A stretch of 46,277 nucleotides of DNA, taken from a virus. The notes below the pieces were generated by a model. The model was not told the origin of the DNA, ran no database searches, and saw only the letters and a list, made by a program, of their open reading frames with translations. Where the stretch lies: positions 1 through 46,277 of IMG/VR virus record IMGVR_UViG_3300009509_000058; one strand, 5' to 3'. The stretch's first letter is position 1; every line of letters starts with the position of its first letter. Both the position numbers and the translations under genes were made by a program. Of this stretch, positions 1,939-45,419 are shown one piece after another.

Positions 1939-2549
1939 GGTGTGATCTCCCGGTAGTAGGTGGGTATACCACCCAATACCTGACTGGTGCGGCTAGTCCT
2001 GGACCCCACACATCGACCATCACTATCGTACAGATACAGCCGACAATACCCTGCCGGTACACGGTAGTGCTTAGCCATGACCACGACCTTATCATAGAGG
2101 TTATCTAGTACTCGATGCCTGATGAATGCTGGGATGTCAGACCATGTACTACCTACTGTTATCTGTAGATAGTGATCGACGAAGTTAAACTTAACTGTTA
2201 TTATAATGTCTTGTGATATCGATGAGCTGATATCCGACGCAATAGCCTGCACACCCGCTACTACCCAAGCGAGCTTGTGATCACGGTCTGGGGTGTTTAT
2301 GCCGGGCGGTAGTATCGGGTACTCTAGTCTGGTAGTGTGACGGATGTACTTCACTGATGATATCGGTATGGACTGTACTCCCACTACCTGATCTGCTATG
2401 ACGTGAGTGTTGGTGTAGCGGACTGAGTCACACTCGATCTTAGTGTCGTCGGTACGGACTACTATAGCGCGTCGAGATAGGGTCGGTAGGTAGGCTGAGC
2501 CAACCGCGAGTAGTGGTAGGTATTTAGTGATTGGGTCTGTTGGTGTCAT
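1935..2549 (-). CDS. Hypothetical protein, 204 aa
   Basis: A soluble 204-residue protein (MTPTDPITKYLPLLAVGSA) with no recognised domain. The N-terminal third alternates hydrophobic and charged residues as in a beta-rich fold, including RRAIVVRTDDTKIECDSV. The C-terminal part contains TWSDIPAFIRHRVLDNLYDKVVV and RLYLYDSDGRCVGS. Its ATG overlaps the TGA of the XRE-type regulator gene (2546-2956), and its own TGA overlaps the next gene, so it is an operon member. It may be a partner of the regulator or one of the accessory proteins; nothing visible decides this. Confidence 0.6.
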   Translation of the reverse strand: MTPTDPITKYLPLLAVGSAYLPTLSRRAIVVRTDDTKIECDSVRYTNTHVIADQVVGVQSIPISSVKYIRHTTRLEYPILPPGINTPDRDHKLAWVVAGVQAIASDISSSISQDIIITVKFNFVDHYLQITVGSTWSDIPAFIRHRVLDNLYDKVVVMAKHYRVPAGYCRLYLYDSDGRCVGSRTSRTSQVLGGIPTYYREITP

Positions 2550-2956
2550 GATTTCTCTCCTTGTAATGATTTGACTTTCTCTAAAGCCGATGTGAGCAGC
2601 GCCGCTAGATCAGCCAACTGATACTCCAGCTGCATTTGCTGGAGATTAGTGACCTGAGTGTTTATGCCGAGCTTAGTCACGTACTCAACCGGAAGCCTGC
2701 GGTTAGACTTCAGTAATCTACTCACGGTGGACTTACTAACACCCAGGATCTCCGCCAGCATGGTCTGAGTGATGTCATGCTGACTCATATAGTCTAGTAG
2801 CTGGTACGTCGACATGTACATGCTGTATGAGTCCTGGACCACTATACTGAACCTACCCTCTGAGTCTACGTCGGATACCATACACTGGTGAATAACCCCA
2901 GGCTTACTGTCGATCTCTATAGATACTATCTCGCCTTTCTGTACCGCTAGCTTCAT
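2546..2956 (-). CDS. Cro/C1 (XRE)-type helix-turn-helix regulator
   Basis: A 136-residue protein with a clear helix-turn-helix in the middle (about residues 58-92): ITQTMLAEILGVSKSTVSRL followed by LKSNRRLP. This is typical of Cro/C1/XRE repressors and of antitoxin-like regulators. The N-terminal half (MKLAVQKGEIVSIEID...) looks like a small beta domain. The C-terminal segment with LQQMQLEYQLADLAALLTSALEKV is probably a dimerising coiled coil. It sits directly downstream of the thg1-like gene in the minus-strand operon. The palindromes between 5038 and 5126 are candidate operators, but that pairing is an inference. Confidence 0.75.
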   Translation of the reverse strand: MKLAVQKGEIVSIEIDSKPGVIHQCMVSDVDSEGRFSIVVQDSYSMYMSTYQLLDYMSQHDITQTMLAEILGVSKSTVSRLLKSNRRLPVEYVTKLGINTQVTNLQQMQLEYQLADLAALLTSALEKVKSLQGEKS

Positions 2957-2958
2957 AT

Positions 2959-3636
2959 CTAGTCCTCCTTGGCTATCAGTAAATCATCAATGCACGATCT
3001 TGATTTAGTAAACACTGTAGTATAGCTGATATCACATCTCGTGACAAATGATCCGTTTTTCCATTTATCATCTAGTTCAGACCAATTAAGTCCTTTCTCG
3101 TATATCATATCTTGACGTTCTGTGTTGTTTTTACCAAATAGTTCTTTATCAGAATACAGTGAGCTAGCTAGCATGTTGACAGAGTTTCGTATCCAGTCCT
3201 GTTGCCTCCATATAAAGTAGTTGCATACCTCTTCTTTTGGTAGATTGAATGCTCTACAATCAAACATGGCTAGTTGATCATACATGAGGCTGAAGCTCGC
3301 CGAGGCCATACCAGCTGATATACTCTCGATTTTGCTTTTATTGTAATCGAACCACGCATCAGTAGTAAATGTATCAAAGTCTGTTAGTAATATAGAAATC
3401 TCATCAGATTGCTTATAAGCGCATTTAGCACCCTGGATATTTGTGACCAGATACGTCGCTACATTGTCCATGACTGACGCGAATCTATAGTCAAATGGCT
3501 TGATGCATTTACGCGTCAGCTGTGAGAAGGATCTACCATCAAGTCTGAGTATTACTGGGGTTCTACGTATGAGATAGTACCGTTGCCGAAACTCGTAGTT
3601 GGATTTCATACGATTTCCTATAGAATCGTTTTTCAT
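2959..3636 (-). CDS. thg1: Thg1-like tRNA-His guanylyltransferase family protein
   Basis: A 225-residue protein with the hallmarks of the Thg1/Thg1-like 3'-5' polymerase family. The metal-binding LRLDGRSFSQLTRK segment (about residues 29-42) is followed by KPFDYRF, then the second carboxylate motif YKQSDEISILL. A later segment, WRQQDWIRNSVNMLASSLYS, corresponds to the conserved N-rich helix. Family members add nucleotides in the 3'-5' direction to tRNA 5' ends: Thg1 adds G-1 to tRNA-His, and bacterial and phage-type relatives repair 5'-truncated tRNAs. I set the start at 3636 because GGAGG lies 8 nt upstream; an in-frame ATG at 3651 lies on the other side of that site. No tRNA gene is visible here, so the substrate is probably a host tRNA, perhaps damaged by host defence nucleases. 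That last point is inference. Confidence 0.85.
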   Translation of the reverse strand: MKNDSIGNRMKSNYEFRQRYYLIRRTPVILRLDGRSFSQLTRKCIKPFDYRFASVMDNVATYLVTNIQGAKCAYKQSDEISILLTDFDTFTTDAWFDYNKSKIESISAGMASASFSLMYDQLAMFDCRAFNLPKEEVCNYFIWRQQDWIRNSVNMLASSLYSDKELFGKNNTERQDMIYEKGLNWSELDDKWKNGSFVTRCDISYTTVFTKSRSCIDDLLIAKED

Positions 3637-3715
3637 TATCATCACCTCCATTCATGATATATTATTCTGTTTTATTTTCTATATCGGGTCAACTCCAAAA
3701 AATCTTCGGTATTTC

Positions 3716-4130
3716 ACTGCAACAAACGCAACAAAATCGACAAAAATAACACTTTTATGAAATTTCCTGCAACAAACTCTCATAATCCCATGCAACAAAC
3801 GCAACAAAATACCCCATAAATGACACTTTCGTGCAACTTTGTGCAACAGATTTTACCTCTTGTTGCAGGAAATTGCATTTTTGACCCCCCTGTTGCATGA
3901 AATGCAACTCGGAAAGATGAAATTTCCTGCAACTCGGCGTGCAACAGGGGGGTCAAAAATGACACTTTTGTGCAACTTTGTGCAACAGCGAGGTGAAAAA
4001 ATGCAACTTTGTGCAACAAATGGCATTTTTTGTGCAACAAAACATACCCAAAATGCAACTTTCTGCAACGAGTTGCGCAAAAGTGTCAAAAATGGCACTT
4101 GTAGTACAACACAAAATCAATGGTTTGCAA
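3716..4130. repeat. TGCAAC repeat island (iteron-like)
   Basis: About 415 bp of noncoding DNA holds roughly 17 copies of the hexamer TGCAAC, often extended to GTGCAACTTTGTGCAACA, plus several inverted copies (GTTGCA) and CGCAAC variants. Longer repeats are superimposed. A 17-nt direct repeat occurs at 3757-3773 and 3917-3933. A near-identical 28-nt block starting GACACTTT recurs near 3822 and 3961. Inverted pairs lie between 3862 and 3961. Reading frames through the repeats on both strands have no ribosome site and are artefacts of the repeats. Density and arrangement resemble replication-origin iterons or a cluster of protein binding sites. Confidence 0.8.
3862..3961. other. Nested long inverted repeats within the TGCAAC island
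   Basis: Two perfect inverted pairs share one centre. Outer arms of 22 nt lie at 3876-3897 and 3940-3961; they contain GACCCCCC/GGGGGGTC and end in TGTTGCA/TGCAACA. Arms of 13 nt lie at 3862-3874 and 3921-3933 (GTTGCAGGAAATT and its complement). A cruciform or a large stem-loop is possible. It could be an origin structure or a noncoding RNA, but nothing decides between these. Confidence 0.7.
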
Positions 4131-4186
4131 CAAATAGGGCGAATTTCATGCCTGTACCCTATACTACTAGAGTATACAAAAGTCGA

Positions 4187-4606
4187 TCATTGGGTATTTT
4201 CTGTTTCGCGTATTTTGTAGTACAGATATTGTATCTCGGCAACGAGACATGACATACCAGGTAATCTACGTATGCTCTTTATATACCACATGTATGACTG
4301 CTTGAGGAGCCTGGTATTGATTTTTCTATATCTAGGCTGTGGTGTGCCGGAGATGTTATCACATATACCGTTACGCTTTCCATAGCCGCATATGGTGCAG
4401 TCCATGCGATTGACTATACACCATGGACATAGTGTGCTGTCTTTAGCAAGTGATAGCCCGTGTAGTGCTATACTACACATCTGCTCTGACCAAGTACGTA
4501 GCTCAGCCATATCGAGCTTACGTGTTAGCACTAGCCCTGTGTGTTTTTTGACTATGGTGTTTTTGCGTTGCATGTACTCTAGTAGTAAGTCGTTGTATTT
4601 ACCCAT
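4187..4606 (-). CDS. CPWC/YGKR Cys-rich protein (paralog pair, copy 2)
   Basis: A 139-residue protein starting MGKYNDLLLEYM. It contains CPWCIVNRMDCTICGYGKRNGIC, an arrangement of five to six cysteines that suggests a zinc-binding knuckle. It is a clear paralog of the product of 4624-5007: same MGKYN start, a WSE segment, CPWC, then C-x2-C-x-YGKR. The C-terminal third is basic and aromatic (KQSYMWYIKSIRRLP). AAAGGAG precedes the ATG. No enzyme motif seen; possibly a small nucleic-acid-binding early protein (inference). Confidence 0.7.
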   Translation of the reverse strand: MGKYNDLLLEYMQRKNTIVKKHTGLVLTRKLDMAELRTWSEQMCSIALHGLSLAKDSTLCPWCIVNRMDCTICGYGKRNGICDNISGTPQPRYRKINTRLLKQSYMWYIKSIRRLPGMSCLVAEIQYLYYKIRETENTQ

Positions 4607-4623
4607 TGTGATGGTTCTCCTTT

Positions 4624-5007
4624 CTATAGTGATAATCCTGTTAGTCTTAGTACCCAGTAGCGGAGTTTGGTACGACGGACTAGTGATCTGATCTTGGGTA
4701 TTTGAGATATTGATAGTGGTACCCTTGTAAACACTGCTTGATATGTACTGGACTCTCTATCGCAACGGCTATGACGCTTACCGTATGCACAGTTATGGCA
4801 CTCTACAGAATGGCGTAGGCACCATGGGCACGCGTTGTAGTCCGTGTCGTGGTTTAGCTTGCTGAGTATGGTCTTGCACTCAGACTCAGACCACTCAGAC
4901 ATCTCGGTCATATCAAGAAACCCAACCAACCTCACACCTGTCATCTCATATACTATCCTGTCTTTGTCGTACATAAACCGCGTCAATAGATTGTTGTATT
5001 TACCCAT
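4624..5007 (-). CDS. CPWC/YGKR Cys-rich protein (paralog pair, copy 1)
   Basis: A 127-residue protein starting MGKYNNLLTRFM, first gene of the minus-strand operon and transcribed away from the divergent control region. It has the paired cysteine motif NACPWCLRHSVECHNCAYGK followed by RHSRC, matching its downstream paralog (4187-4606). The ATG at 5007 follows AGGAGG by about 9 nt. Being closest to the control region, it is probably the first gene expressed from the leftward promoter. Function unknown; the Cys spacing fits a zinc-binding fold. Confidence 0.7.
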   Translation of the reverse strand: MGKYNNLLTRFMYDKDRIVYEMTGVRLVGFLDMTEMSEWSESECKTILSKLNHDTDYNACPWCLRHSVECHNCAYGKRHSRCDRESSTYQAVFTRVPLSISQIPKIRSLVRRTKLRYWVLRLTGLSL

Positions 5008-5140
5008 TACGATAATCCTCCTATAAAATGATCATACTTTACCTATCGGTAAACCCTCTGACCGACTTCGGATATTTACCCCCACAATATTTCATATTGT
5101 CTGTACTACATTGTCTACTATAGTAGAGGACAAACACACA
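5008..5140. promoter_or_regulatory. Divergent intergenic control region with three palindromes
   Basis: This region separates leftward genes (from 5007) and rightward genes (from 5141), so it should hold both promoters. Visible palindromes are TTTACCTATCGGTAAA at 5038-5053, ACAATAT-TTC-ATATTGT at 5084-5100 and CTACTATAGTAG at 5115-5126. The last two sit just upstream of the terminase small-subunit gene. They are plausible operators for a repressor such as the XRE-type protein at 2546-2956. I cannot place -35/-10 boxes with confidence. Confidence 0.5.
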
Positions 5141-5680
5141 ATGACACCAACACTAATGACGAAATCAGAGTACGCCAGGCACCGTGGAGTATCACCACAG
5201 GCAGTGGATAAACTCATCAAAAACGAGCGTATTATGGTCACCGCCGACGGTAAGGTCGACGTAGAGATCTCGGACATAATAATGAACCAGTTTAGTGATT
5301 CTGAGCAGTCGCGTGGTATGACATACAGTAACCTGGAGGACGATGGTTCTGACTTTAGAGAAGGCCTTATCACTCAGCTAGCGACTATCGGATCGTACTC
5401 AGAACAACGTGCTCTGCTGACATCGTACAAAGCCCAACTAGCCAAGATCGAGCTAGACAAGGCCTCAGGTGCAGTAATCGACGCCGAGACAGTCAAACGA
5501 GAAGCGTTCTCTACAGCACGTAGAGTACGTGACTCGATACTCAACCTACCGGATCGTATAGCACCACTAGTCGCCACAGCCGATGACGTCCACGCCATAC
5601 GAACTATCCTAGACACAGAACTACGCAAGGCACTCACCGAACTCTATAATGAGTTCATACCAGCGGAGGGTACAGCATGA
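5141..5680 (+). CDS. Terminase small subunit (Nu1-like)
   Basis: A 179-residue protein with an N-terminal winged-helix or HTH-like segment (KSEYARHRGVSPQAVDKLIK), as in lambda Nu1-type small subunits that bind the packaging site. A central region rich in Glu, Lys and Ala (QRALLTSYKAQLAKIELDKA) and a C-terminal helical segment (AFSTARRVRDSILNLPDRIA) match the usual organisation of this family. The ATG at 5141 is used because GAGGA lies 10 nt upstream; an in-frame TTG at 5111 lies inside the palindromic region. Position, two genes before the GpA-type large subunit, supports the call. Role: recognise DNA ends and recruit the large subunit. Confidence 0.8.
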   Translation: MTPTLMTKSEYARHRGVSPQAVDKLIKNERIMVTADGKVDVEISDIIMNQFSDSEQSRGMTYSNLEDDGSDFREGLITQLATIGSYSEQRALLTSYKAQLAKIELDKASGAVIDAETVKREAFSTARRVRDSILNLPDRIAPLVATADDVHAIRTILDTELRKALTELYNEFIPAEGTA

Positions 5681-6332: not shown

Positions 6333-8264
6333 GTGGTATCGTACCAGCACAGCTTTGCTGAGGGATTACTCCCAAATCCGGTAATGCTCAACTCCGAGTG
6401 GGCTGACACCTACAGGGTGCTCCCGCGAGAGTCATCCAATGAGTATGGTCGCTATAGCATGGACCGAACACCGTACTTTAGGGTACCGTTAGATTGTCTG
6501 TCACCGCAATCACCAGTGAAGATCGTCACAGTCAAAAAACCCACTCAGGTCGGGTGTACTGACGGTATAGGCAACAACTGGCTATTGGCTATAGCCCATA
6601 GCTATCCAGCGCCGTGTATGATGATGCTCCCCACTGTAGAACTAGCAAAACGCCACAGTAAGACCAAGATCGCACCGTCACTGAAAGCCATGACCTGCAT
6701 GGAGGGCTTGGTGCGCGACGTAAAGGAGAAGGGCGGTGGTAATACCCTACTCATAAAGGAATTCCCCGGTGGATCATGGTCGTTCGTCGGCTCTAACTCA
6801 GCATCGGCACTCCGGTCAGTGTCGATCAAATACCTCATCCTAGACGATATCGACGGCTATGAGCAGGATGTTAATCAGGAGGGTGACCCAGCTGAGCTAG
6901 CCCGTAAGCGTATGGATGCATTCTCGGCGTCATGCAAAGAGTTGCGTATGTCAACACCGACACTCAAGGACCTGTCTAAGATCCAGGCATACTTCGAGGA
7001 TGGTGATCAGTCATACTACCACGTGCACTGTCCTTACTGTGGTACTGCTCAGACACTAGAGTTCGGTGGCCCTAACGCTCAGTACGGTATCAAATGGGAC
7101 CGCGCCAGTAATGGCCGACATCTACCAAAGACAGCGCAGTATATGTGTAAGCACTGTCATGAACTAATACCAGAACGCTACAAGACACAAATGCTGGCCA
7201 ATGGACTTTGGGTAGCCACCATACCGGAGCTATCTGACTATCACAGATCATTCGCACTAAACTCGCTGTACTCACCGTATGGTTGGGTATCCTGGGAGAA
7301 GATAGTACGTGAATTCCTAGCGGCTAAGAGATCACCAGGTACAGAAAAGTATCAGGTCTGGATGAACACCAGAATGGGATTAACATTCGAGGCCGGTGGT
7401 GAGCAACCCGACTGGGAGAAACTCAAGAACCGCGCAGAACCATACCAGATAATGACAGTCCCACAGCAGGCTATGTTTTTGACAGCCGGTGTCGACGTAC
7501 AGCTTGACAGATTCGCTATTGTAGTCACAGCTTGGGGCCGAGGCGAAGAATGCTGGGTCATCTATTGGGGTGAAATGTTTTGTGATACTTCACTACAATC
7601 CTCCTGGGATGACCTGGAGGACTTTATGTCCAGAGAGTTCCCTCATGCCTCTGGTATATCGTTAACTCTAACATCATATGCCGTAGACTCCGGGTACCGT
7701 ACCACAGACGTTTACCAGTTCTGTCGACTGCATTCACCAGACGCCATGGCCATCAAGGGATCGTCCCTAGCTGGTCACCCACAGATAGGCAGACCATCCG
7801 ACAAAGACTATACCTATCACGGCGAGACTATCCCACGCAGTGTCCAGCTCTGGCCTGTGGGATCATCAACACTCAAGTCAACACTCTATGGTAGACTCAA
7901 GATCGAGACTCCAGGCCCGCGCTACATACATTTCCCATTAGGCCTACCAGACGATTTCTACAAACAGATCACATCAGAGAAACACATTACCCGCTATGAC
8001 AAAAACGGCATACCTAAGCGCGAGTGGGTATTGCCGCGTGGTAGCCGTAATGAAGGCCTCGACGCCATGAACTACGCACGAGCAGCCGCAGTACGCTCTG
8101 GCCTAGAACGCATTAACTGGGACAAACTCTCCTCTATCCTCAACCTCCGCGCCGCACAAAAGAACACCGATGGTCAGGTCTCACCCAACACACACCCACC
8201 TGCTCATCGCCAACGATCACGACGACGAGTAAAAAGATCAAACTACATGACAGGAGGCATATAA
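6333..8264 (+). CDS. Terminase large subunit (lambda GpA family)
   Basis: A 643-residue packaging motor and nuclease of the GpA family. The N-terminal ATPase shows the lambda-type deviant P-loop region (VKKPTQVGCTDG, about residues 69-80) in place of a canonical GxxGKT. LPTVELAKRHS follows, and the Walker B-like LILDDIDGYE is followed by the family signature EGDPAELARKRMDAF and STPT. A zinc-like pair CPYCG...CKHCHE is present around residues 232-275. The C-terminal nuclease half has VDVQLDRFAIVVTAWG and YAVDSGYRTTDVYQF acidic residues. It converts ATP hydrolysis into DNA translocation through the portal and cuts packaged DNA. The GTG start at 6333 has no obvious ribosome site; the ATG at 6384 is a reasonable alternative. 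Confidence 0.93.
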   Translation: MVSYQHSFAEGLLPNPVMLNSEWADTYRVLPRESSNEYGRYSMDRTPYFRVPLDCLSPQSPVKIVTVKKPTQVGCTDGIGNNWLLAIAHSYPAPCMMMLPTVELAKRHSKTKIAPSLKAMTCMEGLVRDVKEKGGGNTLLIKEFPGGSWSFVGSNSASALRSVSIKYLILDDIDGYEQDVNQEGDPAELARKRMDAFSASCKELRMSTPTLKDLSKIQAYFEDGDQSYYHVHCPYCGTAQTLEFGGPNAQYGIKWDRASNGRHLPKTAQYMCKHCHELIPERYKTQMLANGLWVATIPELSDYHRSFALNSLYSPYGWVSWEKIVREFLAAKRSPGTEKYQVWMNTRMGLTFEAGGEQPDWEKLKNRAEPYQIMTVPQQAMFLTAGVDVQLDRFAIVVTAWGRGEECWVIYWGEMFCDTSLQSSWDDLEDFMSREFPHASGISLTLTSYAVDSGYRTTDVYQFCRLHSPDAMAIKGSSLAGHPQIGRPSDKDYTYHGETIPRSVQLWPVGSSTLKSTLYGRLKIETPGPRYIHFPLGLPDDFYKQITSEKHITRYDKNGIPKREWVLPRGSRNEGLDAMNYARAAAVRSGLERINWDKLSSILNLRAAQKNTDGQVSPNTHPPAHRQRSRRRVKRSNYMTGGI

Positions 8265-15183: not shown

Positions 15184-18006
15184 ATGGCAGTAGATGATAT
15201 CATAGCAATAAAAGCCCAAGCCGTAGACGACATGATGGATACACTGGGGCAATCAGCGGTGTTGACCCCGATAGATCACTCCGTACCACCATTCACCATC
15301 AGAGTACACCCAACATGTATAACTGACAAAGCCCCTGATGGATTTGGTGCCTATGTGGTAGTGCACATGCCAGCAGTGAAGATGTGTCGTGAAGATCTAC
15401 CGGCTGAGTATACACCAGCTAGAGGAGATAGGCTAAGCATCACCGGCTGCGGTGACTTCGTGATAGAGACCCCACTACGGTTATATACCAGCATGGTGAC
15501 GTATGGCATAGCGGCTATACTGTATACATCTACATCCACTACGATGACCACCACGACATCGACTACAACCACTACCAGCTCATCCACAACATCATCTAGC
15601 ACTAGCACTACCAGCTCGTCATCTACTACATCATCGTCGTATAGCACTACGTCTACGCTATCGACAACATCGACCAGCACCAGCACTACGACGTCATCCA
15701 GCACTACCAGCTACAGTACTACGACATCATCCAGTACCACCACCAGTAGCTCTACCACCACATCTACACTCAGCACTAGTACTAGTAGCTCCAGCACCAC
15801 GACGTCGTCTAGTACTACCACGACCAGCTCTAGTACAACTACCACTAGCTCATCATCCAGTACCATTACCACCAGCACTACTACCACCAGCTCCACTACC
15901 TCTAGTAGCTGCTCATCTACCACTACGACGTCATCTAGCACTATGACCACCACTACTACCATGTCGTCTAGCTCTAGCTCCAGCACTACAACTACCACTA
16001 CAATCACTACGACGTCGTCTAGTAGCTCATCCAGCACCACTACGTCGTCTAGCACTACCACCACCACCAGCTCATCATCTAGCACTACAACCTCATCCAG
16101 CACCACTAGCACGCACTCTACTACCTCCACCACACATAGCACTACCACTACCAGCTCATCTACCACTACCAGCTCATCTACTACTACCTCTACTACTAGC
16201 TCATCGTCCAGTACATGCTCTACGCTAAGCACATCGTCCAGCACTACCACTACCACCAGCTCATCGTCTACTACATCCAGTACAATGTCATCTACCACCA
16301 CTACTACCTGGACTACGACCACCACTACGACGTCGTCCAGCACTACCACTACAACATCATCCAGTACCACCACGACGTCATATAGTACCACTACGACATC
16401 ATCTACTACTAGTAGCTCATCATCTACATTATCTACTACTAGTACCTCATCATCTACTACCTCCACATCATCCAGCACCTATAGCACACTATCCACCACT
16501 ACCTCTACCACATCGTCGTCTACTACCACCACCACGACGTCGTCTAGCTCATCCACGACGTCTACCAGCACGTCTACGTATAGTACATCATCAACCACTA
16601 CTAGCACAACCACCAGCACTACTACATCATCATCGTCAACTACCTTAAGCTCTACCACGTCATCCAGCACTACGTCATCGACACTATCGACATCTACCAC
16701 TACCAGCTCATCGTCATCGACATCCAGTACGGCCTCTACACTGTCCACTACATCGTCTACTACATCATCCAGCACTACTACATCATCCACGATATCATCC
16801 TCATCATCATCTACCACTACCAGCTCCTCCACTACATCAATGACCACTACCACTACTACCTCAGACCTCTACGAATACTCCTACTACCGTACTATCACCA
16901 TCGACAACACCAAGGTCTACGGTGCCGCTAATCACAGTAACTTCCCGATGTTGTTCTCACACACTGCTGACTGGCTCAAAACCATAGGCAACGGAGGACA
17001 TATCACCGACTCTAATGGCTATGACATCATATTCACTGATGAGGACGCACTCGACCAGCTCGATCACGAGATAATCTCATACAACGGCACTACTGGAGAG
17101 TTCGTAGCCTGGGTGAGAATACCCACGCTGCTATACTCTACAGACACCACTATCCGTATATTCTATGGTAATTCCGCCATCTCATCATCCCAGGAAAACA
17201 TCGGTGGTACCTGGGAGCCCAACTACCTTGGTGTGTGGCATATGAAAGAATCCGGTAACGGCACTACTGATGAATTCGTAGACTCTAGCGGCAACAGCAA
17301 TCACGGTACTGGCGGTAACGGTGTAACAAGCGCTACTCCGACACGCACAACCGGAAAGCTAAAATACAGCCAGAGCTTCGACGGTGGTGACTTTATCACC
17401 ATGGGTAACGTACTCAGCCGAGGCAAGAACGCAGCACAATCCTACTCAGCTTGGATACAAACCACTAGCGGATCTGCAATGCAAGTAGTAGGAAAAGCCA
17501 ACGCCTCTACATGGCAGGGAGTATGGTGTGACTTAGAGGCAACCGGCGACATGGGATTTTACATGTACGATAGTGTCGGCAACTACATAGCTAAGCTAAG
17601 TAACACCAACTACACATCAGGTGCTTGGCATTACCTGACATGGGTGTTTGACGGTACCAACGACGCTTCCGGTATATCACTATACGCAGACGGCGCATTA
17701 CTGACTGCTAGTAGCAACAACGACCCACTAGGTACTGTGACTAGTACTGTTGTGTTCAGTATAGGCTGCGCTGGCAACGGCGGTGGATATTTCTGGGATG
17801 GTCTATTGGAAGAGATCAGACTACGTGGATACACCACACCTCTGACCTGGCATCAAACAGAATACGCTAATCAAAACTCACCAAGCACATTCTATACGCT
17901 AGGCGCCGAGACAGGATCATTATCACGCACGTCAACCACAACAACAACTACAACAACAACTACCACCACTAGTACCAGCACTACTACATCAACACCGCCA
18001 CCATAA
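15184..18006 (+). CDS. gpFII-like connector fused to mucin-like stalk and LamG domain
   Basis: A 940-residue protein in four parts. Residues 1-115 resemble lambda-type head-tail joining protein FII: AVDDMMDTLGQSAVLTPI, then TPARGDRLSITGCGDFVIET. Residues about 116-559 are almost only Ser and Thr, with scattered Tyr, Leu, Cys, His and Met, like a mucin stalk. Residues about 560-905 form lectin-like modules: first a DUF2341-like part (YRTITIDNTKVYGAANHSNFP and IRIFYGNS), then a LamG/concanavalin-type jelly roll (LGVWHMKESG, SQSFDGGDFITMG, YSAWIQT, WHYLTWVFDGTN, WDGLLEEIRL). A short Thr-rich tail ends TSTPPP. Normal FII proteins have roughly 117 residues, so the extension would project from the neck as fibres or whiskers (inference). 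GGAGGG precedes the ATG. Confidence 0.8.
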   Translation: MAVDDIIAIKAQAVDDMMDTLGQSAVLTPIDHSVPPFTIRVHPTCITDKAPDGFGAYVVVHMPAVKMCREDLPAEYTPARGDRLSITGCGDFVIETPLRLYTSMVTYGIAAILYTSTSTTMTTTTSTTTTTSSSTTSSSTSTTSSSSTTSSSYSTTSTLSTTSTSTSTTTSSSTTSYSTTTSSSTTTSSSTTTSTLSTSTSSSSTTTSSSTTTTSSSTTTTSSSSSTITTSTTTTSSTTSSSCSSTTTTSSSTMTTTTTMSSSSSSSTTTTTTITTTSSSSSSSTTTSSSTTTTTSSSSSTTTSSSTTSTHSTTSTTHSTTTTSSSTTTSSSTTTSTTSSSSSTCSTLSTSSSTTTTTSSSSTTSSTMSSTTTTTWTTTTTTTSSSTTTTTSSSTTTTSYSTTTTSSTTSSSSSTLSTTSTSSSTTSTSSSTYSTLSTTTSTTSSSTTTTTTSSSSSTTSTSTSTYSTSSTTTSTTTSTTTSSSSTTLSSTTSSSTTSSTLSTSTTTSSSSSTSSTASTLSTTSSTTSSSTTTSSTISSSSSSTTTSSSTTSMTTTTTTSDLYEYSYYRTITIDNTKVYGAANHSNFPMLFSHTADWLKTIGNGGHITDSNGYDIIFTDEDALDQLDHEIISYNGTTGEFVAWVRIPTLLYSTDTTIRIFYGNSAISSSQENIGGTWEPNYLGVWHMKESGNGTTDEFVDSSGNSNHGTGGNGVTSATPTRTTGKLKYSQSFDGGDFITMGNVLSRGKNAAQSYSAWIQTTSGSAMQVVGKANASTWQGVWCDLEATGDMGFYMYDSVGNYIAKLSNTNYTSGAWHYLTWVFDGTNDASGISLYADGALLTASSNNDPLGTVTSTVVFSIGCAGNGGGYFWDGLLEEIRLRGYTTPLTWHQTEYANQNSPSTFYTLGAETGSLSRTSTTTTTTTTTTTTSTSTTTSTPPP
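15529..16860 (+). repeat. Mucin-like Ser/Thr coding tract
   Basis: About 1.33 kb encodes roughly 444 residues of Ser and Thr. Thr codons ACT, ACC, ACG and ACA and Ser codons TCA, TCC, TCG, TCT, AGC and AGT are mixed, so the DNA is not a simple microsatellite. Antisense frames stay open and read as Val/Asp/Leu strings; these are by-products of composition. Confidence 0.9.
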
Positions 18007-23201: not shown

Positions 23202-26200
23202 ATGATATACGTAGGAATATCCACTCAGACATTCGACCTCCGAGGTAGCGTATTATTCAAAGCCAATGTATCCGAGACCGAGACTGACTCACTATCACGC
23301 AGAGTCACCCGTACAGCTACACTGGATGGTGGAGTCTCTATCACAGATAGTGGATACTCTGATGGGGATCGAACGTTCACCATAGTAGCAGAACTCACTG
23401 AGGCCCAGACTGATCGCCTAAAATACATCATGCGCAACTACTCAGAGGTGATAATGTCCATACCGGAGGGGATATTTCTGGTAAGCCTATCCTCACTCAA
23501 TAACATCTATGGTACTATCACTCTCCAGGCATACGTAAGTGAAAAGTTAGCCCCACTGGACATCCCAGCCTACTACTGCTCACGAGACTGCACATTCCAT
23601 AACTTGAACTGGTGGTATATCACCAAGCTCGACGGTACTGAGACCGCGACATCATACCTAAAGGGCGTCACTGACTATGAATGCGCTATAGACCTACCAG
23701 ACTCTACCGATACCCAAATCACTATACTCTACCAATACCTCATCCCAGCTGGAGATTTCGATATTGATCTGAGCCTATCCGACTACACCCCGGACGACGC
23801 TACTAACGGATTTGTGATCATGCTACGATTACGATCATCTGACAGCACATACTACTCTACTGTATATATGCGCACCACAGCAGTAGGAACATACCAAATC
23901 ACCCGTGCACATAAAGATGGCGCTATAACCTACACCGATGTCGATACAACCTCCAATGACCCTGGCACATTCCGCATCACCAGGATCGGTAATGAACTCT
24001 CAGCGTACTATTTCGCTAACTCATGGTCACTAGACTATACCCACGACTTTGACTCACACTCCAGTGACATCACTCATATAGAGGTTGTAGCCTACGACAC
24101 AGCTACACGAGGCGGTTCAGTAGACATAGATGATCTGATTTTTCGTCAGGGCTGCCCTGATCAATACCCAAAAGCCTGGACAACCACTAGCTCATCTACC
24201 ACTACAACATCATCCAGCACCGCATCTACCACATCATCATCCAGCTCACTGAGCACTACCACATCCACTACCAGCAGTACGACATCCACCACATCCACTA
24301 CTAGCAGTACGACAACTACCAGTTCTACACTATCCACTACCAGTACTACTATGTCAGGATCTACCACTAGCACAAGCCTTAGTACTACCACATCAACTAC
24401 CGCTACTACCACCACTACATCTACATCATCTACGACGTCATCTACAGCATCAACCACTAGCACGCTATCTACGACGTCATCTACAGCATCAACTACCAGT
24501 ACACTATCTACTGCTAGTACTACATCCTCAACAGCGTCAACCACCAGTACTCTATCTACCACCAGCACTCTGTCCACTACGTCCAGCACAGCATCTACCA
24601 CTAGCACACTATCCACAGCCAGTACTACATCCAGCACCGCTTCAACATCAACAATGACCAGTACTGTATCTACCGCGACAACAACCACGTCACCTCCATG
24701 CCCTTTCAATGAAAGCTTTGATGACCTGTCAGAGTGGTATATAGCCAAATACAACGGAGACGAAGAGTATGAGCTAACAGGTGGTAAGCTACGTTTTCAT
24801 ATACCCAATGGCGATAGAGAAATCACAGCCTGGCACCACTATGAAATACCTTCCGGTGATTTTGAGATAATGGTCACGCTAAGTGACTACACCCCACATG
24901 CAACTACCAGCTTTATAGTAGAACTATTAGTATCAAATACAATATCATCCAGGCCAGAGACAGACCCATCAGTGCACGATTGGGCCGCTGTTCTATATAA
25001 CATGGACGGTAGCTCGCACTACTCAAAATACAGATACAAATACAACAGCGCATATACCAACGGTCCGGCAAACAACATAGGAGCTGCCGCAACAAAGCTC
25101 AGATTACGTCGTGTAGGCACATTGATATATTTTGATTGCTATAGGTCAGGAGCGTGGTACTCCAATGGCGCTAAAGACTTTCTAGCAAGAGCAGGAAACC
25201 TAGTAGATCTTGGTATCTGTATCACTGATAGAGTAAACACCGGAGGCGAGGTTAAGTTTGATGATCTGTGGTTTATACAGGGATGCCCTGAAGGAACCCC
25301 AGCTTGGACAACCACCAGCACTACCACCACTACTAGCACATCTACAATATCAACCACATCCAGCGTATCCACTACCAGCTCTACAGTAACCAACTCATCG
25401 ACATCATCAACCGCCACGACTACTACTGCGCTGTGTGAGTTTGATGAGGATTTCACCTCACTAGACAACTGGCGTGTCACTAACGCTAATGGGTATTCAA
25501 CATCAGTAATATCCGGCAGTAAACTAAAAATGCAGGTAGAGGACGGTCATAGTGGTTACACCGCCTGTGACTATGGCTACCATCTACACACTGGAGATTT
25601 TGATATAACAGTCGACATGGACTCATACTACACAGAGAGTCCAACAGACGGCTCTAAAATATATTTTATGGTGAGTGACGCTTTAGTAGCACCTGACAAT
25701 AACTGTTATATAATGTACTACCAAGATACTTCATATAAGGTAAAAGCTCAGTCAACCATAAATGGAGTAACAGGATCAGCAACAACAGACACTACCAGTG
25801 TAGAGACTACCAGACTGCGTATAACCCGCGTAGGTACAGTACTGAGTGTATACTACTATGAAGGTTCTTGGGTCCTGCTAGAGTCCTGGGATTTCTCATC
25901 CTACGCACCATCGCTGTATATGGTGATACTGTACATGGAGTCTAACCCAGGTGGTAGAGTCTATATGGATAACCTAAAATTCATAGAGGGATGTCCGTAC
26001 CCAACCACAACCACTACTACGTCTACGTCCACCACGACATCAACTACCACCAGTACTACAGCCTCTACGTCAACTACGTGTAGCACATCCAGCACATTGT
26101 CTACAGTAACAACCACAACCTGTATCTATAATGAATTCTTTAGTGGTGATCTCAGTTCCTGGACAATAGATGAGGAGTACGGTAGCGAAACAGCCAGTAT

Positions 26201-29085: not shown

Positions 29086-32000
29086 CCAAGTACGACCTAG
29101 TAACCGCTCTACACTGGGCAGACCAGCTAGTCGTCGTACAAAACGGAGTAACAAAACGCTGCACTATTGAGCAAATCTATGAGCTAATGGGGCACACAAC
29201 CACCAGCTCGACCACTACTAGTTCGACCACGACATCGTCAAGCTCTACGACATCCAGTACAGCTAGTACTATATCAACCACGTCTAGTACGTCGTCTACA
29301 GCATCTACTACGTCTAGTACTGCATCTACGCTGTCAACTACATCCTCTAGTACCAGTACTACGACGTCATCCAGTACCAGCACCAGTACAAGTACTACGA
29401 CGTCATCTAGCACTACTACTAGCACTACTACATCATCTAGCACCAGCACCAGCTCTAGTAGTACTACTACATCGTCATGCAGCACTACTACCAGCACCAG
29501 TACTACAACATCGTCCAGCACTACTACCAGTACTATTAGTACATCGTCCAGCACTACCACTACAATCTCTACTACCACATCGTCCTCTACCACTACTACA
29601 TCGTCCAGTACCAGCAGCACCAGCTCCAGTACCACTACAACTATCTCCAGCACCACTGCTAGTAGCTCCAGTACTACCACCAGCAGCTTTAGCACTACTA
29701 GTACAACCCACTCAAGCACTACATCGTCATCCAGCACCACTACTACACACTCAACTACGACTACAACAAGCTCTAGTAGTACCACAAGCTCTACCATGTC
29801 CACTACATCCAGTACTGCCAGTACTATCTCCACGACATCATCCAGCACCACCACCAGCTCTTCTACTACCTCTACGTCGTCATCTACTACTACTACATCG
29901 TCATCTACCACTACATCTAGCACGTCCAGTACTGCATCTACTATATCGACGACATCATCGTCCTCCAGCACATCGTCTACTGCATCTACTATCTCCACGA
30001 CTTCCAGTACTGCATCTACAGTCTCTACGACATCATCAAGCACCACCAGCTCAAGTACTACCTCTAGTACAGCATCCACACTATCCACTACCAGTACCTC
30101 ATCGTCATCCACTACGTCAAGCTCGACGTCTACTACAGCTAGTACATGGTCAACAACCACCACAAGCTCATCGACTCTATCTACTACTTCATCTACCATG
30201 ACTAGCTCCAGTACTACTACTAGCTCATCAACAGCCTCTACAACATCATCCAGTACAAGCACCACGGCATCTACACTGTCAACCACCACCACCACTACCT
30301 ACTGGTGCGAGTTCAGTGAATCATTCCCGGATCTTGAATCCTGGAATATGGAAACCAGCGGTGGAGGCACTGCATCAATAGTCTCTGGAAATCTTAAGCT
30401 AGATCTACCGGACTCTGTGACGTCATACGTAATAGGCTACTACATGTACTTACTGCCTACTGGTAACTTCGACTTAGAGATAGATCTGGATAGCTATACT
30501 CCAGACTCAGAGTCTGATGGATTCTACATCACACTGGACACAGTAGATGGTGACACAGCTATAGCTGATCGCTATGGAGTACGCTACAAAACAGATGCAG
30601 GACCTATACACACTGTGTATGGTGTATGGAGATTGAACAACTCTAACGCATCAGGTACAGAATATCACCCAGCCGGACTACCGACAAAACTACGAGTAAC
30701 CAGGACAACTACTGTGTTTAGATCATACTACTTCTATGGTGGATCTTGGACACTAGTCAATACTCAAGACTTTAGCACCAGAGCATCCAATGTGGTTGCT
30801 ATACGAGTAATGGCTGTGTCTCGTAATGACAGAGGTGGTTCTGTAGACTTCGATAACATGGCGTTCAATACATATTGTCCTGATGGTTATCCGAAATTCT
30901 GGACCACGACATCAAGTACGACTACTACCACAAGCTCCAGCACTACTACCAGCTCATCCAGTACTTTATCTACTACTACGTCGTCCACTACTACCACCAG
31001 TACTAGTTCATCGACATCCAGTACAATGTCTACACTATCTACGACTACATCTACTAGCACGAGTTCATCGACGTCATCTACGGCATCCACACTATCTACT
31101 ACGTCGACATTATCTACTACATCATCAACTGCGTCTACTACATCTACATTATCTACTACATCATCCACATTATCCAGCTCATCCACTACAACTACCTATT
31201 GGTGTGAGCGTAGTGAGACATTTGAAAGTTTAGATCTGTGGAATATCCAAGAGACAGCAGGCGTCACATCCAGTATAGTCGACAATAAGTTCCGTGTACA
31301 CTGCGAAGCAGACACCGGATACATACATGGAGACTATCATTACAAATACAGGCTGCCTGAAGGCGATTGCGATATTAGTCTTGACTTATCTAATTACAAC
31401 CCTGATCCTGGAGAACTCGGAGCAAGGTGTTACTTCTATATGGTGGATCTGCCGTTAGGATCACCGACTACGTTTGGATGGATAAGCACGTGGCAATATG
31501 CTACTGGCTTATACAGAGTTGCTTATTATATGAATGCTAGCGGTGATTTAGACAGCGGTGATACCTCTGGACTCACTAGTCTACCAACATCACTACGAGT
31601 AACAAGATCAGGTGATATAGTCTCAACTTACTATTACTACAACGGATCGTGGAATTTACTGCACAGTAAGGACTATGGCGAGTACGCTTCTGACCTCGTA
31701 GGAGTTAGGATCGATGTATATGCTATAGATTCATCAAATGGCGGTGCAATAGATATGGACAACATGACATATAATAGTTGCTGTCCAAGGATATTCCCAC
31801 CATACTGGCCTTCTGATGCTACCAGCTCAACATCGTCGACATCGTCCACCATGTCTACAACATCGACATTATCTACTACCACGACATCAACAACCAGCTC
31901 TAGTACATCATCTACAGCTAGCACGCTCTCAACCACTACAACATCATCTAGCTCGTGCTCCAGTACGTCATCTACAGCTAGCACGCTCTCAACTACGTCA

Positions 32001-32216
32001 TCTACGGCTAGCACACTCTCTACGACGTCATCTAGCACTACCACTACTAGCTCATGCTCATCCACATCCAGCACAGCATCGACATTATCTACTACGACCT
32101 CATCCAGTACTACCACGACGTCGTCGACTACATGCTCATCGACATCATCTACAGCATCGACTACGCACACATCAACCACCACTACCTGCACCACTACATC
32201 AACACCTCCGGGCTAA
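29073..32216 (+). CDS. Mucin-like tail fibre with two lectin-like modules
   Basis: A 1047-residue protein. The N-terminal 42 residues (KYDLVTALHWADQLVVVQNG, TKRCTIEQIYELMG) resemble virion-attachment segments of tail fibres. Then come three Ser/Thr tracts at about residues 43-409, 610-708 and 914-1047, with recurrent STASTLSTTS- or STASTISTTS-like units. Between them lie two modules (about 410-609 and 709-913) of the same family as the four in the 23202-26729 product: FPDLESWNM or FESLDLWNI starts, a FDLEIDLDSYTPDSES-type segment, LRVTR, YYxYxGSW and GGxxDxDNM ends. The chain ends TSTPPG. An AGGAGG lies about 13 nt before the ATG. This is the main receptor-fibre candidate, followed by hairpins and the glycosyltransferase cassette. 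Confidence 0.8.
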   Translation: MPRITKYDLVTALHWADQLVVVQNGVTKRCTIEQIYELMGHTTTSSTTTSSTTTSSSSTTSSTASTISTTSSTSSTASTTSSTASTLSTTSSSTSTTTSSSTSTSTSTTTSSSTTTSTTTSSSTSTSSSSTTTSSCSTTTSTSTTTSSSTTTSTISTSSSTTTTISTTTSSSTTTTSSSTSSTSSSTTTTISSTTASSSSTTTSSFSTTSTTHSSTTSSSSTTTTHSTTTTTSSSSTTSSTMSTTSSTASTISTTSSSTTTSSSTTSTSSSTTTTSSSTTTSSTSSTASTISTTSSSSSTSSTASTISTTSSTASTVSTTSSSTTSSSTTSSTASTLSTTSTSSSSTTSSSTSTTASTWSTTTTSSSTLSTTSSTMTSSSTTTSSSTASTTSSSTSTTASTLSTTTTTTYWCEFSESFPDLESWNMETSGGGTASIVSGNLKLDLPDSVTSYVIGYYMYLLPTGNFDLEIDLDSYTPDSESDGFYITLDTVDGDTAIADRYGVRYKTDAGPIHTVYGVWRLNNSNASGTEYHPAGLPTKLRVTRTTTVFRSYYFYGGSWTLVNTQDFSTRASNVVAIRVMAVSRNDRGGSVDFDNMAFNTYCPDGYPKFWTTTSSTTTTTSSSTTTSSSSTLSTTTSSTTTTSTSSSTSSTMSTLSTTTSTSTSSSTSSTASTLSTTSTLSTTSSTASTTSTLSTTSSTLSSSSTTTTYWCERSETFESLDLWNIQETAGVTSSIVDNKFRVHCEADTGYIHGDYHYKYRLPEGDCDISLDLSNYNPDPGELGARCYFYMVDLPLGSPTTFGWISTWQYATGLYRVAYYMNASGDLDSGDTSGLTSLPTSLRVTRSGDIVSTYYYYNGSWNLLHSKDYGEYASDLVGVRIDVYAIDSSNGGAIDMDNMTYNSCCPRIFPPYWPSDATSSTSSTSSTMSTTSTLSTTTTSTTSSSTSSTASTLSTTTTSSSSCSSTSSTASTLSTTSSTASTLSTTSSSTTTTSSCSSTSSTASTLSTTTSSSTTTTSSTTCSSTSSTASTTHTSTTTTCTTTSTPPG

Positions 32217-37277: not shown

Positions 37278-37307
37278 ATAATAAAATAACACTCATAGAT
37301 CGGAGGA
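37278..37307 (+). repeat. Duplicated 30-nt leader, copy 1
   Basis: An exact 30-nt block that ends in CGGAGGA and supplies the ribosome site for the gene at 37316. The same 30 nt occur at 37534-37563. Exact identity suggests a recent duplication or a conserved regulatory leader. Confidence 0.85.
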
Positions 37308-37315
37308 TATTACAT

Positions 37316-37537
37316 ATGACCGGCAAGATATGTAAAGGTGCATTATTTATAGAAAGATTTGGTATACTTACTGAACAGCAATGCCCATATGACAACGGCC
37401 ATGGTAGCATTTGTGGTACTTGGTGTCCTTTGTTTGGGGAGGCTAGAATGACACTTGATGGTATTGACCTAGACATATGTGGTAATAAACACCTAATATT
37501 TAGTGAGTTGGATACCACGCAAGCTGCGAGGGAATAA
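37316..37537 (+). CDS. Small Cys-containing protein, unknown
   Basis: A 73-residue protein (MTGKICKGALFIERFGILTE) with cysteines in CPYDNGHGSICGTWCPLFGE and a later DICGNKH. The pattern suggests a metal-binding or disulfide-stabilised small domain. The start is 9 nt after GGAGG within the duplicated leader. The stop TAA lies inside the second copy of that leader. Function unknown. Confidence 0.6.
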   Translation: MTGKICKGALFIERFGILTEQQCPYDNGHGSICGTWCPLFGEARMTLDGIDLDICGNKHLIFSELDTTQAARE

Positions 37538-37563
37538 TAAAATAACACTCATAGATCGGAGGA
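37534..37563 (+). repeat. Duplicated 30-nt leader, copy 2
   Basis: An exact copy of the 30-nt block at 37278-37307, again ending in CGGAGGA, here serving the gene at 37571. The stop codon of the previous gene is inside the repeat. Confidence 0.85.
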
Positions 37564-43523: not shown

Positions 43524-43700
43524 ATGACTAAAAAAGATCTAATAGACGCAATAATAGAGGCTAAACCGGATTGGTCCTCAGGATCATGTCCTCCAGACAA
43601 CGGAGAAGGTGATGGGTATTCCTGTGGGACCTATAATAGCTGTACACAGTGTTGGGAAGATTTCCTAACCACTAGACATAAGGTATATAAACCAGAATGA
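43524..43700 (+). CDS. CPPD/CxxCW Cys-rich protein, copy 5
   Basis: A 58-residue member (TKKDLIDAIIEAKPDWSSGS, CPPDNGEGDGYSCG, SCTQCWEDFLTTRHKVYKP). The ATG at 43524 follows GGAGTG by 7 nt. Its stop overlaps the helicase start (ATGA). The end VYKP resembles the MYKP of the second module of copy 1. It is the last unit of the array. Confidence 0.72.
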   Translation: MTKKDLIDAIIEAKPDWSSGSCPPDNGEGDGYSCGTYNSCTQCWEDFLTTRHKVYKPE

Positions 43701-45282
43701 TTCACACATTACCTAAACCAACAGACCTCGGCCTACCACCGAAATTCACCTCGTGGCGTAGTGGCCAGGTCCGGGCTATACTGGACACCATCGACTACCA
43801 ACAACGCTTCTTCACTCAGATCCAGCCTACAGGCTCAGGTAAGTCCCTGTGCTATGTCACTACAGCGATACTGAAAGGCTGCCGAACGCTCATCCTAACC
43901 TCCCTGAAAGGCCTACAGGAACAGTTAGTCGCTGATTTCGGATCATCACCAGGTATAGCCAAGGTAATGGGTAAGTCATCCTATACCTGTCCAAAGACCG
44001 AAACCTCATGCGAATGGGCACCGTGCAACTTCGGCACGTACTGTAGAAACAAAAAAGAAGGTGGATGCCCTTACTATGACGCTATACGCATAGCTACCAG
44101 ATCCCAGATAGTCGTGACCAACTACGCATTCTGGCACGCCAATGCCGCTGACAGACTAGGTGAGTTCGACCTATTGGTGTGTGACGAAGCCCACAATGCA
44201 GTAAATCATCTAGTCGATAGTCTATCACTCCGAGTAACACGAAAATCCTCACTAACACTGGTATTCAATGGCCAGCACCAGGCGATAACCTCTGGGACTG
44301 GGTACGTAACGCTCACAATCGCCTTGATGATCTGATCAAATGCAAGATCGCAGAGTATAATGGCAAGGTACGTGGTATCACTAGCGAAACATTCAAAAAG
44401 TACCACGCACTAAAGACCAGACTAAAGACACTCACAGCACAAATGCCAGACCAGTGGGTTACCGAGTACTTCTCAGACTATATCACCTACGACCCGCTAT
44501 GGCCCCCGGAGTTCTCAGAAAAGCTACTGTTTCGGGATATACCGATGATCCTACTCACGTCCGCTACCATGGGTGCTAGCACACTACGAATGCTTGGAGT
44601 GCCTATAGTCGGCTCCAAGACCATAGAGTACCCATCGTACTTTCCGGTTCAGCGACGTCCTGTGTACTACATACCTACCACCCGTGTGGATTTCAGAATC
44701 ACCAACCTCGGCTATTCACTATGGTGTAACCGTATAGACCAAATCATTGGTCCACGGCTAGATCGCAAAGGCATCATACACACTGTTAGCTATGATCGCA
44801 AAAACCGCATTACCAATGTCAGCGAATACTCTCAGTACTTCTATACTCACAAGACCCGTGATATGCTAGCGTCGCTCAGGAGGTTTAGGTCTGCCAACCC
44901 CCCAGCCATTCTGTGCTCACCGTCAGTGGTCACTGGCTGGGATTTCCCCTACCAGCAATGCGAATACCAGATCATAGGTAAAATACCATTCCCAGATGCT
45001 AGGCGTAAAGTCGATAAGGCTCGGCGTGAAAAGGACCCTGACTACTCGTGTTGCATGGCGATGCAGAATCTCGTACAGACATGTGGTAGGGGTATGAGGT
45101 ACCCAGATGATCAGTGCGAGAACATGATTATTGATGATCATTTTGTGTGGTTCGTGAGAAAGTACGCTAAGTACGCGCCTCAGTGGTGGTTGAATGCGGT
45201 TCAGACAGTGAAGACTATACCGGAACCACCAGAGAGACTAATTGATTGTAACTGTAATAGTGTTATTGGAGGATTATTATGA
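43697..45282 (+). CDS. XPD/DinG-type superfamily 2 helicase, apparently frameshifted
   Basis: Two adjacent frames together make one helicase of about 528 residues. The first (43697-44335 frame) has Walker A QPTGSGKSLCYV, an Fe-S-type cysteine cluster (YTCPKTETSCEW, CNFGTYCRNKKEGGCPYYDA) and the DEAH box LLVCDEAHNA. The second frame, open from 44221 to TGA at 45280-45282, has LLTSATM (motif III), SPSVVTGWDFPYQQCEY and motif VI QTCGRGMRYPDDQC. The frames meet around 44221-44270; an AAAA run at 44242-44245 would allow a -1 slip from CGA AAA to AAA ATC. The fusion restores a continuous sequence (NTGIQWPAPGDNLWDWV after the join). A real frameshift mutation, programmed slippage or a sequencing indel are all possible. 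Probable role: DNA unwinding in replication or repair. Confidence 0.82.
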
Positions 45283-45419
45283 AAAATTACAGAAAACACA
45301 AATACTGGTCATGGTCAAGGTCAAAGTCAGGGTCAGGGTCAAGGTCATGGTCATTGTCAATGTCATGGTCAGGGTCATGGTCAGGGTCATGGTCAAGGTC
45401 AATGTCAGGGTCAATATAG
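45279..45419 (+). CDS. Small protein of alternating X-Ser dipeptides
   Basis: A 46-residue protein: MKNYRKHKY, then 18 dipeptides in which every second residue is Ser (WSWSRSKSGSGSRSWSLSMS continuing in the same way), ending I. GGAGG lies 6 nt before the ATG, and the ATG overlaps the helicase TGA. All 18 Ser codons are TCA, and the partner codons are mostly TGG, AGG, GGG and ATG, so the DNA is a hexamer repeat. Basic and aromatic residues alternate with Ser. It may be a nucleic-acid- or membrane-binding peptide, or a slippage-prone nonfunctional gene. Unknown. Confidence 0.6.
   Translation: MKNYRKHKYWSWSRSKSGSGSRSWSLSMSWSGSWSGSWSRSMSGSI
45306..45413 (+). repeat. Hexamer (GGTCAN-type) tandem repeat
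   Basis: About 18 tandem degenerate copies of the hexamer TGGTCA/GGGTCA/AGGTCA. All three forward frames are open through it; only the X-Ser frame has a ribosome site. The other frames would read Gly-Gln/Gly-His or Val-Lys/Val-Arg repeats and have no good start. Confidence 0.85.

What the first reader, a model, noticed from the sequence alone, without database searches (positions are those of the whole stretch)
3716..4130. TGCAAC repeat island with nested inverted repeats
Seen: about 17 TGCAAC hexamers plus inverted copies, a 17-nt direct repeat, a 28-nt near-repeat, and perfect 22-nt and 13-nt inverted arms. It sits between two minus-strand genes, is not coding, and is bounded sharply. Candidate replication origin, partition-like centromere, packaging signal or decoy for a DNA-binding protein.
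Basis: partly seen in the sequence, partly recalled or inferred. Interest (0 to 1): 0.7.

Follow-up and report, generated by a model that had tools for sequence, protein, structure and literature searches.

The report
Phage array of phased TTGCA sites
A 415-base non-coding stretch of an uncultured phage genome is packed with about 20 copies of a short DNA word spaced by the turn of the double helix, and a distant relative keeps a diverged version in the same place, so it is very probably a functional docking array for a phage protein (an operator or a replication origin), an uncommon but not unprecedented kind of element.

Summary
Window 3718-4131 carries 16 TGCAAC and 2 GTTGCA, against 9 in the other ~46 kb (shuffles: mean 1.6, max 7), plus the stated direct and inverted repeats, in the largest intergenic gap (535 bp) between two minus-strand genes.

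New results: the same-strand copies keep a 10.5-bp helical phase (R=0.72, p=2e-4). Several form TTGC-N6-TTGC direct repeats, 5 here against 2 in the rest of the window. A distant relative (terminase 71-73% identical) has a syntenic 411-bp island with a diverged word (TTTTGTGCAAG, AAAATGTCAATTTTGTGCAAG). In both phages it heads a leftward operon encoding a small HTH protein.

Best reading: a multi-site docking array for that HTH protein, acting as an operator for the leftward operon. Close rival: an iteron-type replication origin. A Rep_O gene in another phage carries 22-bp iterons built on nearly the same word, but no initiator was found here and GC skew does not favour an origin. Partition, packaging, attachment site and leader RNA are less likely. 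HTH binding is inferred, not shown. Ordinary in kind, but well conserved and testable.

The parts
3716..4140 (.). TGCAAC island: 16 TGCAAC + 2 GTTGCA, 18 GCAAC on the + strand and 3 GTTGC; copies phased at about 10.5 bp
3652..4186 (.). Non-coding intergenic gap that holds the island, the largest of the window (535 bp)
3833..3846 (-). TTGC-N6-TTGC direct repeat TTGCACAAAGTTGC
3863..3876 (+). TTGC-N6-TTGC direct repeat TTGCAGGAAATTGC, opposite orientation
3972..3985 (-). TTGC-N6-TTGC direct repeat TTGCACAAAGTTGC
4003..4016 (-). TTGC-N6-TTGC direct repeat TTGCACAAAGTTGC
4055..4068 (-). TTGC-N6-TTGC direct repeat TTGCAGAAAGTTGC
3815..3849 (+). 35-nt composite unit CATAAATGACACTTTCGTGCAACTTTGTGCAACAG (copy 1)
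   Evidence: related unit AAAATGTCAATTTTGTGCAAG in L004 2767 and 2915
3954..3988 (+). 35-nt composite unit, copy 2 (94% identical)
3876..3897 (+). 22-nt perfect inverted arm, left
   Evidence: pair I3
3940..3961 (-). 22-nt perfect inverted arm, right
   Evidence: pair I3
3664..3692 (-). Promoter-like site TTGACC-17-CAGAAT facing the leftward operon, in the AT-rich flank (74% AT) between island and Thg1 gene
   Evidence: consensus match only; AT content
4146..4165 (.). Short element TGTACCCTATA at the upstream end of the island, also present in the relative (part of palindrome CCCTATATTATATAATAGGG there)
   Evidence: alignment
2959..3651 (-). Thg1-like tRNA-His guanylyltransferase gene, first gene downstream of the island; at this place in the window only
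   Evidence: PF04446 E 1.3e-24; phrog_4717 E 1.5e-74
2546..2956 (-). Small HTH protein (136 aa: short beta domain, Xre/Cro-type HTH, long C-terminal helix), candidate binder; 31% identical counterpart in the relative starts right after its island
4187..4606 (-). CPWC/CxxC small-protein paralogue upstream of the island (family conserved on this side in the relative)

Best explanation
The island is an array of binding sites for the small HTH protein encoded in the leftward early operon that the island heads (gene 2546-2956, minus strand). The half-site is TTGC(A), often paired as TTGC-N6-TTGC. Most copies sit on one face of the helix, so many HTH molecules can line up and form a cooperative nucleoprotein complex next to the leftward promoter. 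The likeliest use is an operator and switch that autoregulates the leftward operon; the same complex may also help start replication. Shown: the array, its phasing, its confinement to one place, and its conservation in place with a diverged word beside the same HTH gene. Inferred: that this HTH protein binds it, that the nearby promoter-like site is real, and that the effect is regulatory.
For: The site word is essentially confined to the island in both genomes. Same-strand copies keep a 10.5-bp phase: R=0.72, p=2e-4; p=0.004 when each distinct spacing is counted once. A relative with 71% identical terminase keeps a syntenic island that shares 10-mers beyond shuffles (28 against max 22) and has 10 TGCAA/TTGCA, p=0.0045. 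In both phages the leftward operon below the island encodes the HTH protein: 31% identical, HTH core GVSKSTVSR against GVSESTMSR, so word and protein have both diverged. TTGC-N6-TTGC is the documented target form of another small phage HTH protein, lambda/P22 CII (PMC2629481), and the relative's HTH hits CII-like families weakly (phrog_725 E 3.3e-5). A promoter-like TTGACC-17-CAGAAT lies between island and operon.
Against: No binding data. 16-20 sites over 400 bp is far more than a usual phage operator. The promoter is a bare consensus match, and the number of such matches in the region (23) is only about 2 sd above shuffles (mean 15.2, sd 3.9). The relative's sites are not clearly helically phased (spacings 20, 18, 16, 94) and hold no exact TTGC-N6-TTGC pair. 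The HTH protein hits many generic HTH families equally well, and PF05269 (CII) is below its cut-off. In the window the Thg1 gene lies between island and HTH gene. Only one independent relative is available.
Confidence: 0.42

Rival explanations
1. Replication origin of iteron type: an initiator (phage HTH protein, or a host protein) binds the phased repeats and melts the AT-rich flank (3650-3715), with or without a leader transcript.
For: Largest non-coding gap, AT-rich flank of 74%. Helically phased direct repeats are typical of iteron origins (PMC5043065). Ceduovirus origins are non-coding regions between divergent early and late blocks (PMC7150918). In an unrelated phage (L023) a Phage_rep_O gene carries iterons GTTRCACAAA, mostly 21-22 bp apart, that match the island word, including the 18-mer ATGWCANTTTTGTGCAAS.
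Against: No Rep_O gene in window or relatives; none of the scanned window or relative genes is a recognised initiator. GC skew does not switch in the origin sense. Replication genes (Pol A, helicase) lie in the rightward block. The same decamer also occurs in tandem beside many integrase genes, so likeness to L023 iterons is a lead only. No DnaA boxes TTWTNCACA in the island.
Confidence: 0.32
2. Leader RNA: a leftward promoter at the far end (about 4150-4190) transcribes the island as a structured 5' leader or small RNA.
For: The minus strand folds better than shuffles (z -4.7) and the relative's too (z -2.7). A TGTACCCTATA element is shared at the upstream end.
Against: The other strand folds as well or better (z -6.7 and -2.3), as expected of DNA inverted repeats. 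No Rfam family reaches its gathering score. The main 22-nt hairpin is not evident in the relative. Helical phasing is a DNA property.
Confidence: 0.09
3. Partition site (centromere) of a plasmid-like prophage.
For: A phased repeat array upstream of an operon with a small DNA-binding protein resembles ParR/omega-type centromere-operators (own knowledge); no tyrosine integrase in window or relatives.
Against: None of the leftward or early genes scanned matched a ParA, ParM or TubZ NTPase; a serine recombinase was not tested; the genomes may be incomplete.
Confidence: 0.06
4. Packaging site (cos/pac) for the lambda-type terminase.
For: TerS (5111-5680) and lambda-type TerL are about 1 kb away.
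Against: In lambda-type phages cos lies directly upstream of terS (own knowledge); here two small genes intervene (three in the relative), and the gap just before terS (5008-5110) is the more natural place. No end-mapping data.
Confidence: 0.05
5. Attachment-site arm sequences for an integrase, or a remnant of one.
For: TTTGTGCAAC-N-TTTGTGCAAC tandem repeats (11-bp period) sit beside tyrosine-recombinase-like genes in many other contigs.
Against: No PF00589 integrase in G000, G001 or G002. The window uses 10-bp, not 11-bp, pairs and has far more copies.
Confidence: 0.04

Closest known systems
Iteron origins (lambda ori, P1/RK2-type plasmids)
   Same: Array of short repeats, mostly in one orientation, in phase with the helix, next to AT-rich DNA
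   Different: No recognised initiator gene beside or around it; sites are not 18-22 bp iterons at a constant spacing; inverted copies mixed in; GC skew does not support an origin
Lambda/P22 CII target sites (TTGC-N6-TTGC) with CII
   Same: Five exact TTGC-N6-TTGC pairs in the island; a small phage HTH protein with a long C-terminal helix in the adjacent operon
   Different: CII uses single sites at a few promoters; here many half-sites are clustered in one place; the HTH protein fails the CII family cut-off and has an extra N-terminal beta domain
Ceduovirus (lactococcal c2-type) origin region
   Same: A few-hundred-bp non-coding region near the boundary of oppositely transcribed early and late blocks
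   Different: c2-type origins are not known from TGCAAC arrays; here small genes separate the region from the late block; function untested
ParR/omega-type centromere-operators
   Same: Phased short direct repeats upstream of an operon with a small DNA-binding protein
   Different: No partition NTPase found
22-bp iterons inside the Phage_rep_O gene of IMGVR_UViG_3300032069_000048 (L023)
   Same: Iteron word GTTRCACAAAA..TGAYA nearly identical to the island word
   Different: Inside a rep gene, regular 21-22 bp spacing, unrelated phage backbone

Membership tests
Iteron-type replication origin | Multiple repeats in helical phase | tested here: met
   R=0.72 at 10.5 bp, p=2e-4; not clear in the relative
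Iteron-type replication origin | AT-rich unwinding region adjacent | tested here: inconclusive
   3650-3699 is 74% AT, but it also holds the promoter-like site
Iteron-type replication origin | Cognate initiator gene | tested here: inconclusive
   No Phage_rep_O in G000, G001, G002; no initiator among the proteins scanned; genomes may be incomplete and not every ORF was scanned
Iteron-type replication origin | GC-skew switch in origin sense | tested here: not met
   Positive to negative in the window; no switch at the island in G001
Iteron-type replication origin | Autonomous replication | not testable with these tools
   needs a plasmid assay
Lambda CII family (HTH 2546-2956) | PF05269 above curated cut-off | tested here: not met
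   15.7 bits against cut-off 21.3 in the relative over 27 positions; no match in the window
Lambda CII family (HTH 2546-2956) | TTGC-N6-TTGC targets | tested here: met
   5 in the island, 2 in the rest of the window; no exact pair in the relative; presence of the sites only, binding not tested
Lambda CII family (HTH 2546-2956) | Fold match to CII | tested here: inconclusive
   Model pLDDT 69, Foldseek finds only generic Xre-type HTH, none at E<=0.001
ParABS/ParMRC partition site | Partition NTPase in the operon | tested here: inconclusive
   None among the leftward and early genes scanned; genomes may be incomplete
cos/pac packaging site | Virion genome end at or near the site | not testable with these tools
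   needs end mapping or read-end pile-up
Integrase arm sites (att) | Tyrosine integrase gene adjacent | tested here: not met
   No PF00589 in G000, G001, G002

The most novel reading that the evidence does not exclude
The island is a phage replication origin run by a small (about 136 aa) HTH protein with a CII-like way of reading TTGC-N6-TTGC half-sites, a class of initiator and origin not previously described as far as I know, which would tie an early regulator and origin firing to one nucleoprotein array.
Probability: 0.12. Interest if true: 0.6.

Novelty: new member of a known kind. Interest (0 to 1): 0.4.

Why it matters
Most uncultured phages have no mapped origin or operator. This element is compact, conserved in place while its word drifts together with a neighbouring HTH protein, and it gives a specific binding test. 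If it is an origin, it adds an origin type without a recognised initiator to a group of environmental phages whose capsid and terminase are distantly related to those of Wolbachia phage WO.

Tried and rejected
DNA similarity to annotated phages: none. Exact 27-mer scan: none. Relatives by Thg1 protein: none; by HTH or CPWC protein in annotated phages, and by the relative's HTH protein in plasmids: none. Terminase, CPWC and neighbour-gene scans returned the same two or three contigs; the genome collection gave only a 32% identical terminase. Scan for tandem TTTGTGYAAC: mostly sites beside integrase genes or coding coincidences, with no Rep_O or CII link, so the shared decamer is not diagnostic. 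Rfam: nothing above gathering score. RNA-structure reading down-weighted because both strands fold well. Structure of the HTH protein: only generic HTH. Other repeats in the window (37278/37534, 45306-45414) are gene-leader and coding repeats, not competing islands. DnaA boxes: none in the island.

Full report
Observation. The window is a 46,277-bp IMG/VR virus record without end repeats. It is a tailed phage with lambda-type terminase (TerS 5111-5680, TerL 6333-8264), portal, protease, major head protein and tape measure. The head protein is about 53% identical to that of Wolbachia phage WO. The reported island is real. There are 16 TGCAAC and 2 GTTGCA in 3718-4131, against 9 in all the rest, and shuffled islands have 1.6 on average, at most 7. 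The direct and inverted repeats are as described; the near-repeat is 35 nt at 94%. The island fills the largest intergenic gap among the genes I selected, 535 bp against 191 for the next.

Anatomy. On the minus strand the word reads GTTGCACAAA(A)GTGTCATTT. The same-strand copies keep helical phase: Rayleigh R is 0.72 at 10.5 bp, p=2e-4 against random positions. When each distinct spacing is used once, to guard against local duplication, p is 0.004. Eight copies from 3940 to 4064 fit a 10.3-10.4-bp period with R=0.99. Five pairs are TTGC-N6-TTGC, with two elsewhere in the window. Block 3862-3976 is an imperfect 115-bp self-inverted repeat. A promoter-like TTGACC-17-CAGAAT faces the leftward genes at 3692-3664, in a 74% AT flank.

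Conservation. Terminase-based searches found one independent related lineage (L004 from IMGVR 3300018080_000189, 61,963 bp; L005 nearly the same; L003 a short fragment). Its TerL is 71-73% identical. At the same place, between the HTH gene and the CPWC small-protein paralogues, it has a 411-bp non-coding island with repeats AAAATGTCAATTTTGTGCAAG and related copies. TGCAA/TTGCA there is 10 against 3.7 in shuffles (p=0.0045), and the two islands share 28 ten-mers against at most 22 in 300 shuffles. The word has drifted (TGCAAC to TGCAAG) and the HTH protein has too (31% identity; GVSKSTVSR to GVSESTMSR). In the window a Thg1 gene lies between island and HTH gene; in the relative it does not.

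The candidate binder. Gene 2546-2956 encodes 136 aa: a short beta domain, an HTH of the Xre/Cro kind, and a long C-terminal helix. Fold search gives only generic HTH matches, none at E<=0.001. The relative's protein weakly hits CII-like families over HTH and C-terminus (phrog_725 E 3.3e-5), but the Pfam CII family stays below its cut-off. Lambda and P22 CII read TTGC-N6-TTGC (PMC2629481). This is a likeness of mode, not membership.

Function. The best-supported reading is a multi-site docking array for this HTH protein, at the head of the leftward operon that encodes it, acting as an operator. The number of sites is high for an operator, so an iteron origin is a close rival. For the origin: helical phase and an AT-rich flank (compare PMC5043065), a non-coding region near the early/late boundary (compare Ceduovirus, PMC7150918), and an unrelated phage (L023) whose Phage_rep_O gene contains iterons, mostly 21-22 bp apart, with almost the same word. 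L023 was found by scanning for the word itself, and the same decamer also occurs in tandem beside many integrase genes, so this likeness is a lead, not proof. Against the origin: no Rep_O gene in these phages, replication genes elsewhere, and a GC skew that does not switch in the origin sense. Partition, attachment, packaging and leader-RNA readings lack the required partners or are weakened by the data.

Limits. Only one independent relative was available. In it the helical phase is not evident (spacings 20, 18, 16, 94). All functional steps are inferred. Neither virus record is known to be complete, and not every ORF of the two genomes was scanned, so the absence of an initiator, integrase or partition gene is not final.

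Noticed in passing
window 2959-3651 (-): A phage-encoded Thg1-like tRNA-His guanylyltransferase sits directly downstream of the island; it is absent at this place in the relative.
   Followed up: partly
window 43697-45282 (+): The DNA helicase (phrog_2488) is split into two ORFs by a frame change near 44300-44440; in the relative it is one 519-aa ORF. Could be a sequencing error or a real frameshift.
   Followed up: partly
window 45306-45414: Tandem GGTCAN hexamer array, apparently coding a short Ser/Trp/Arg-rich repeat protein.
   Followed up: no
window 37278-37307 and 37534-37563: Perfect 30-bp repeat that includes the ribosome-binding site before two neighbouring genes: duplicated gene leader.
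   Followed up: no
window 15550-16870, 24180-24600, 29200-32200: Mutually similar, C-rich repetitive coding segments (strong negative GC skew) in several large ORFs, perhaps collagen-like.
   Followed up: no
window 4187-5007; L004 1867-2271, 3142-4400: Family of small paralogous proteins with CPWC...CxxC-YGKRH...C motifs, no Pfam or PHROG match for the window copies, 2 copies in the window and 4 in the relative.
   Followed up: partly
L023 2381-2545: Iteron array GTTRCACAAA, spacing mostly 21-22 bp, inside a Phage_rep_O gene (lambda-ori-like layout) in an unrelated phage contig.
   Followed up: partly
L040, L082, L088, L091, L097, L144 and others: TTTGTGCAAC-N-TTTGTGCAAC 11-bp tandem repeats just beside or overlapping tyrosine-recombinase-like genes in many contigs, probably integrase arm or att sites.
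   Followed up: partly
L005 79-214: About 135-bp G-rich tract near the contig end that is not in the otherwise matching L004; likely assembly artefact.
   Followed up: no
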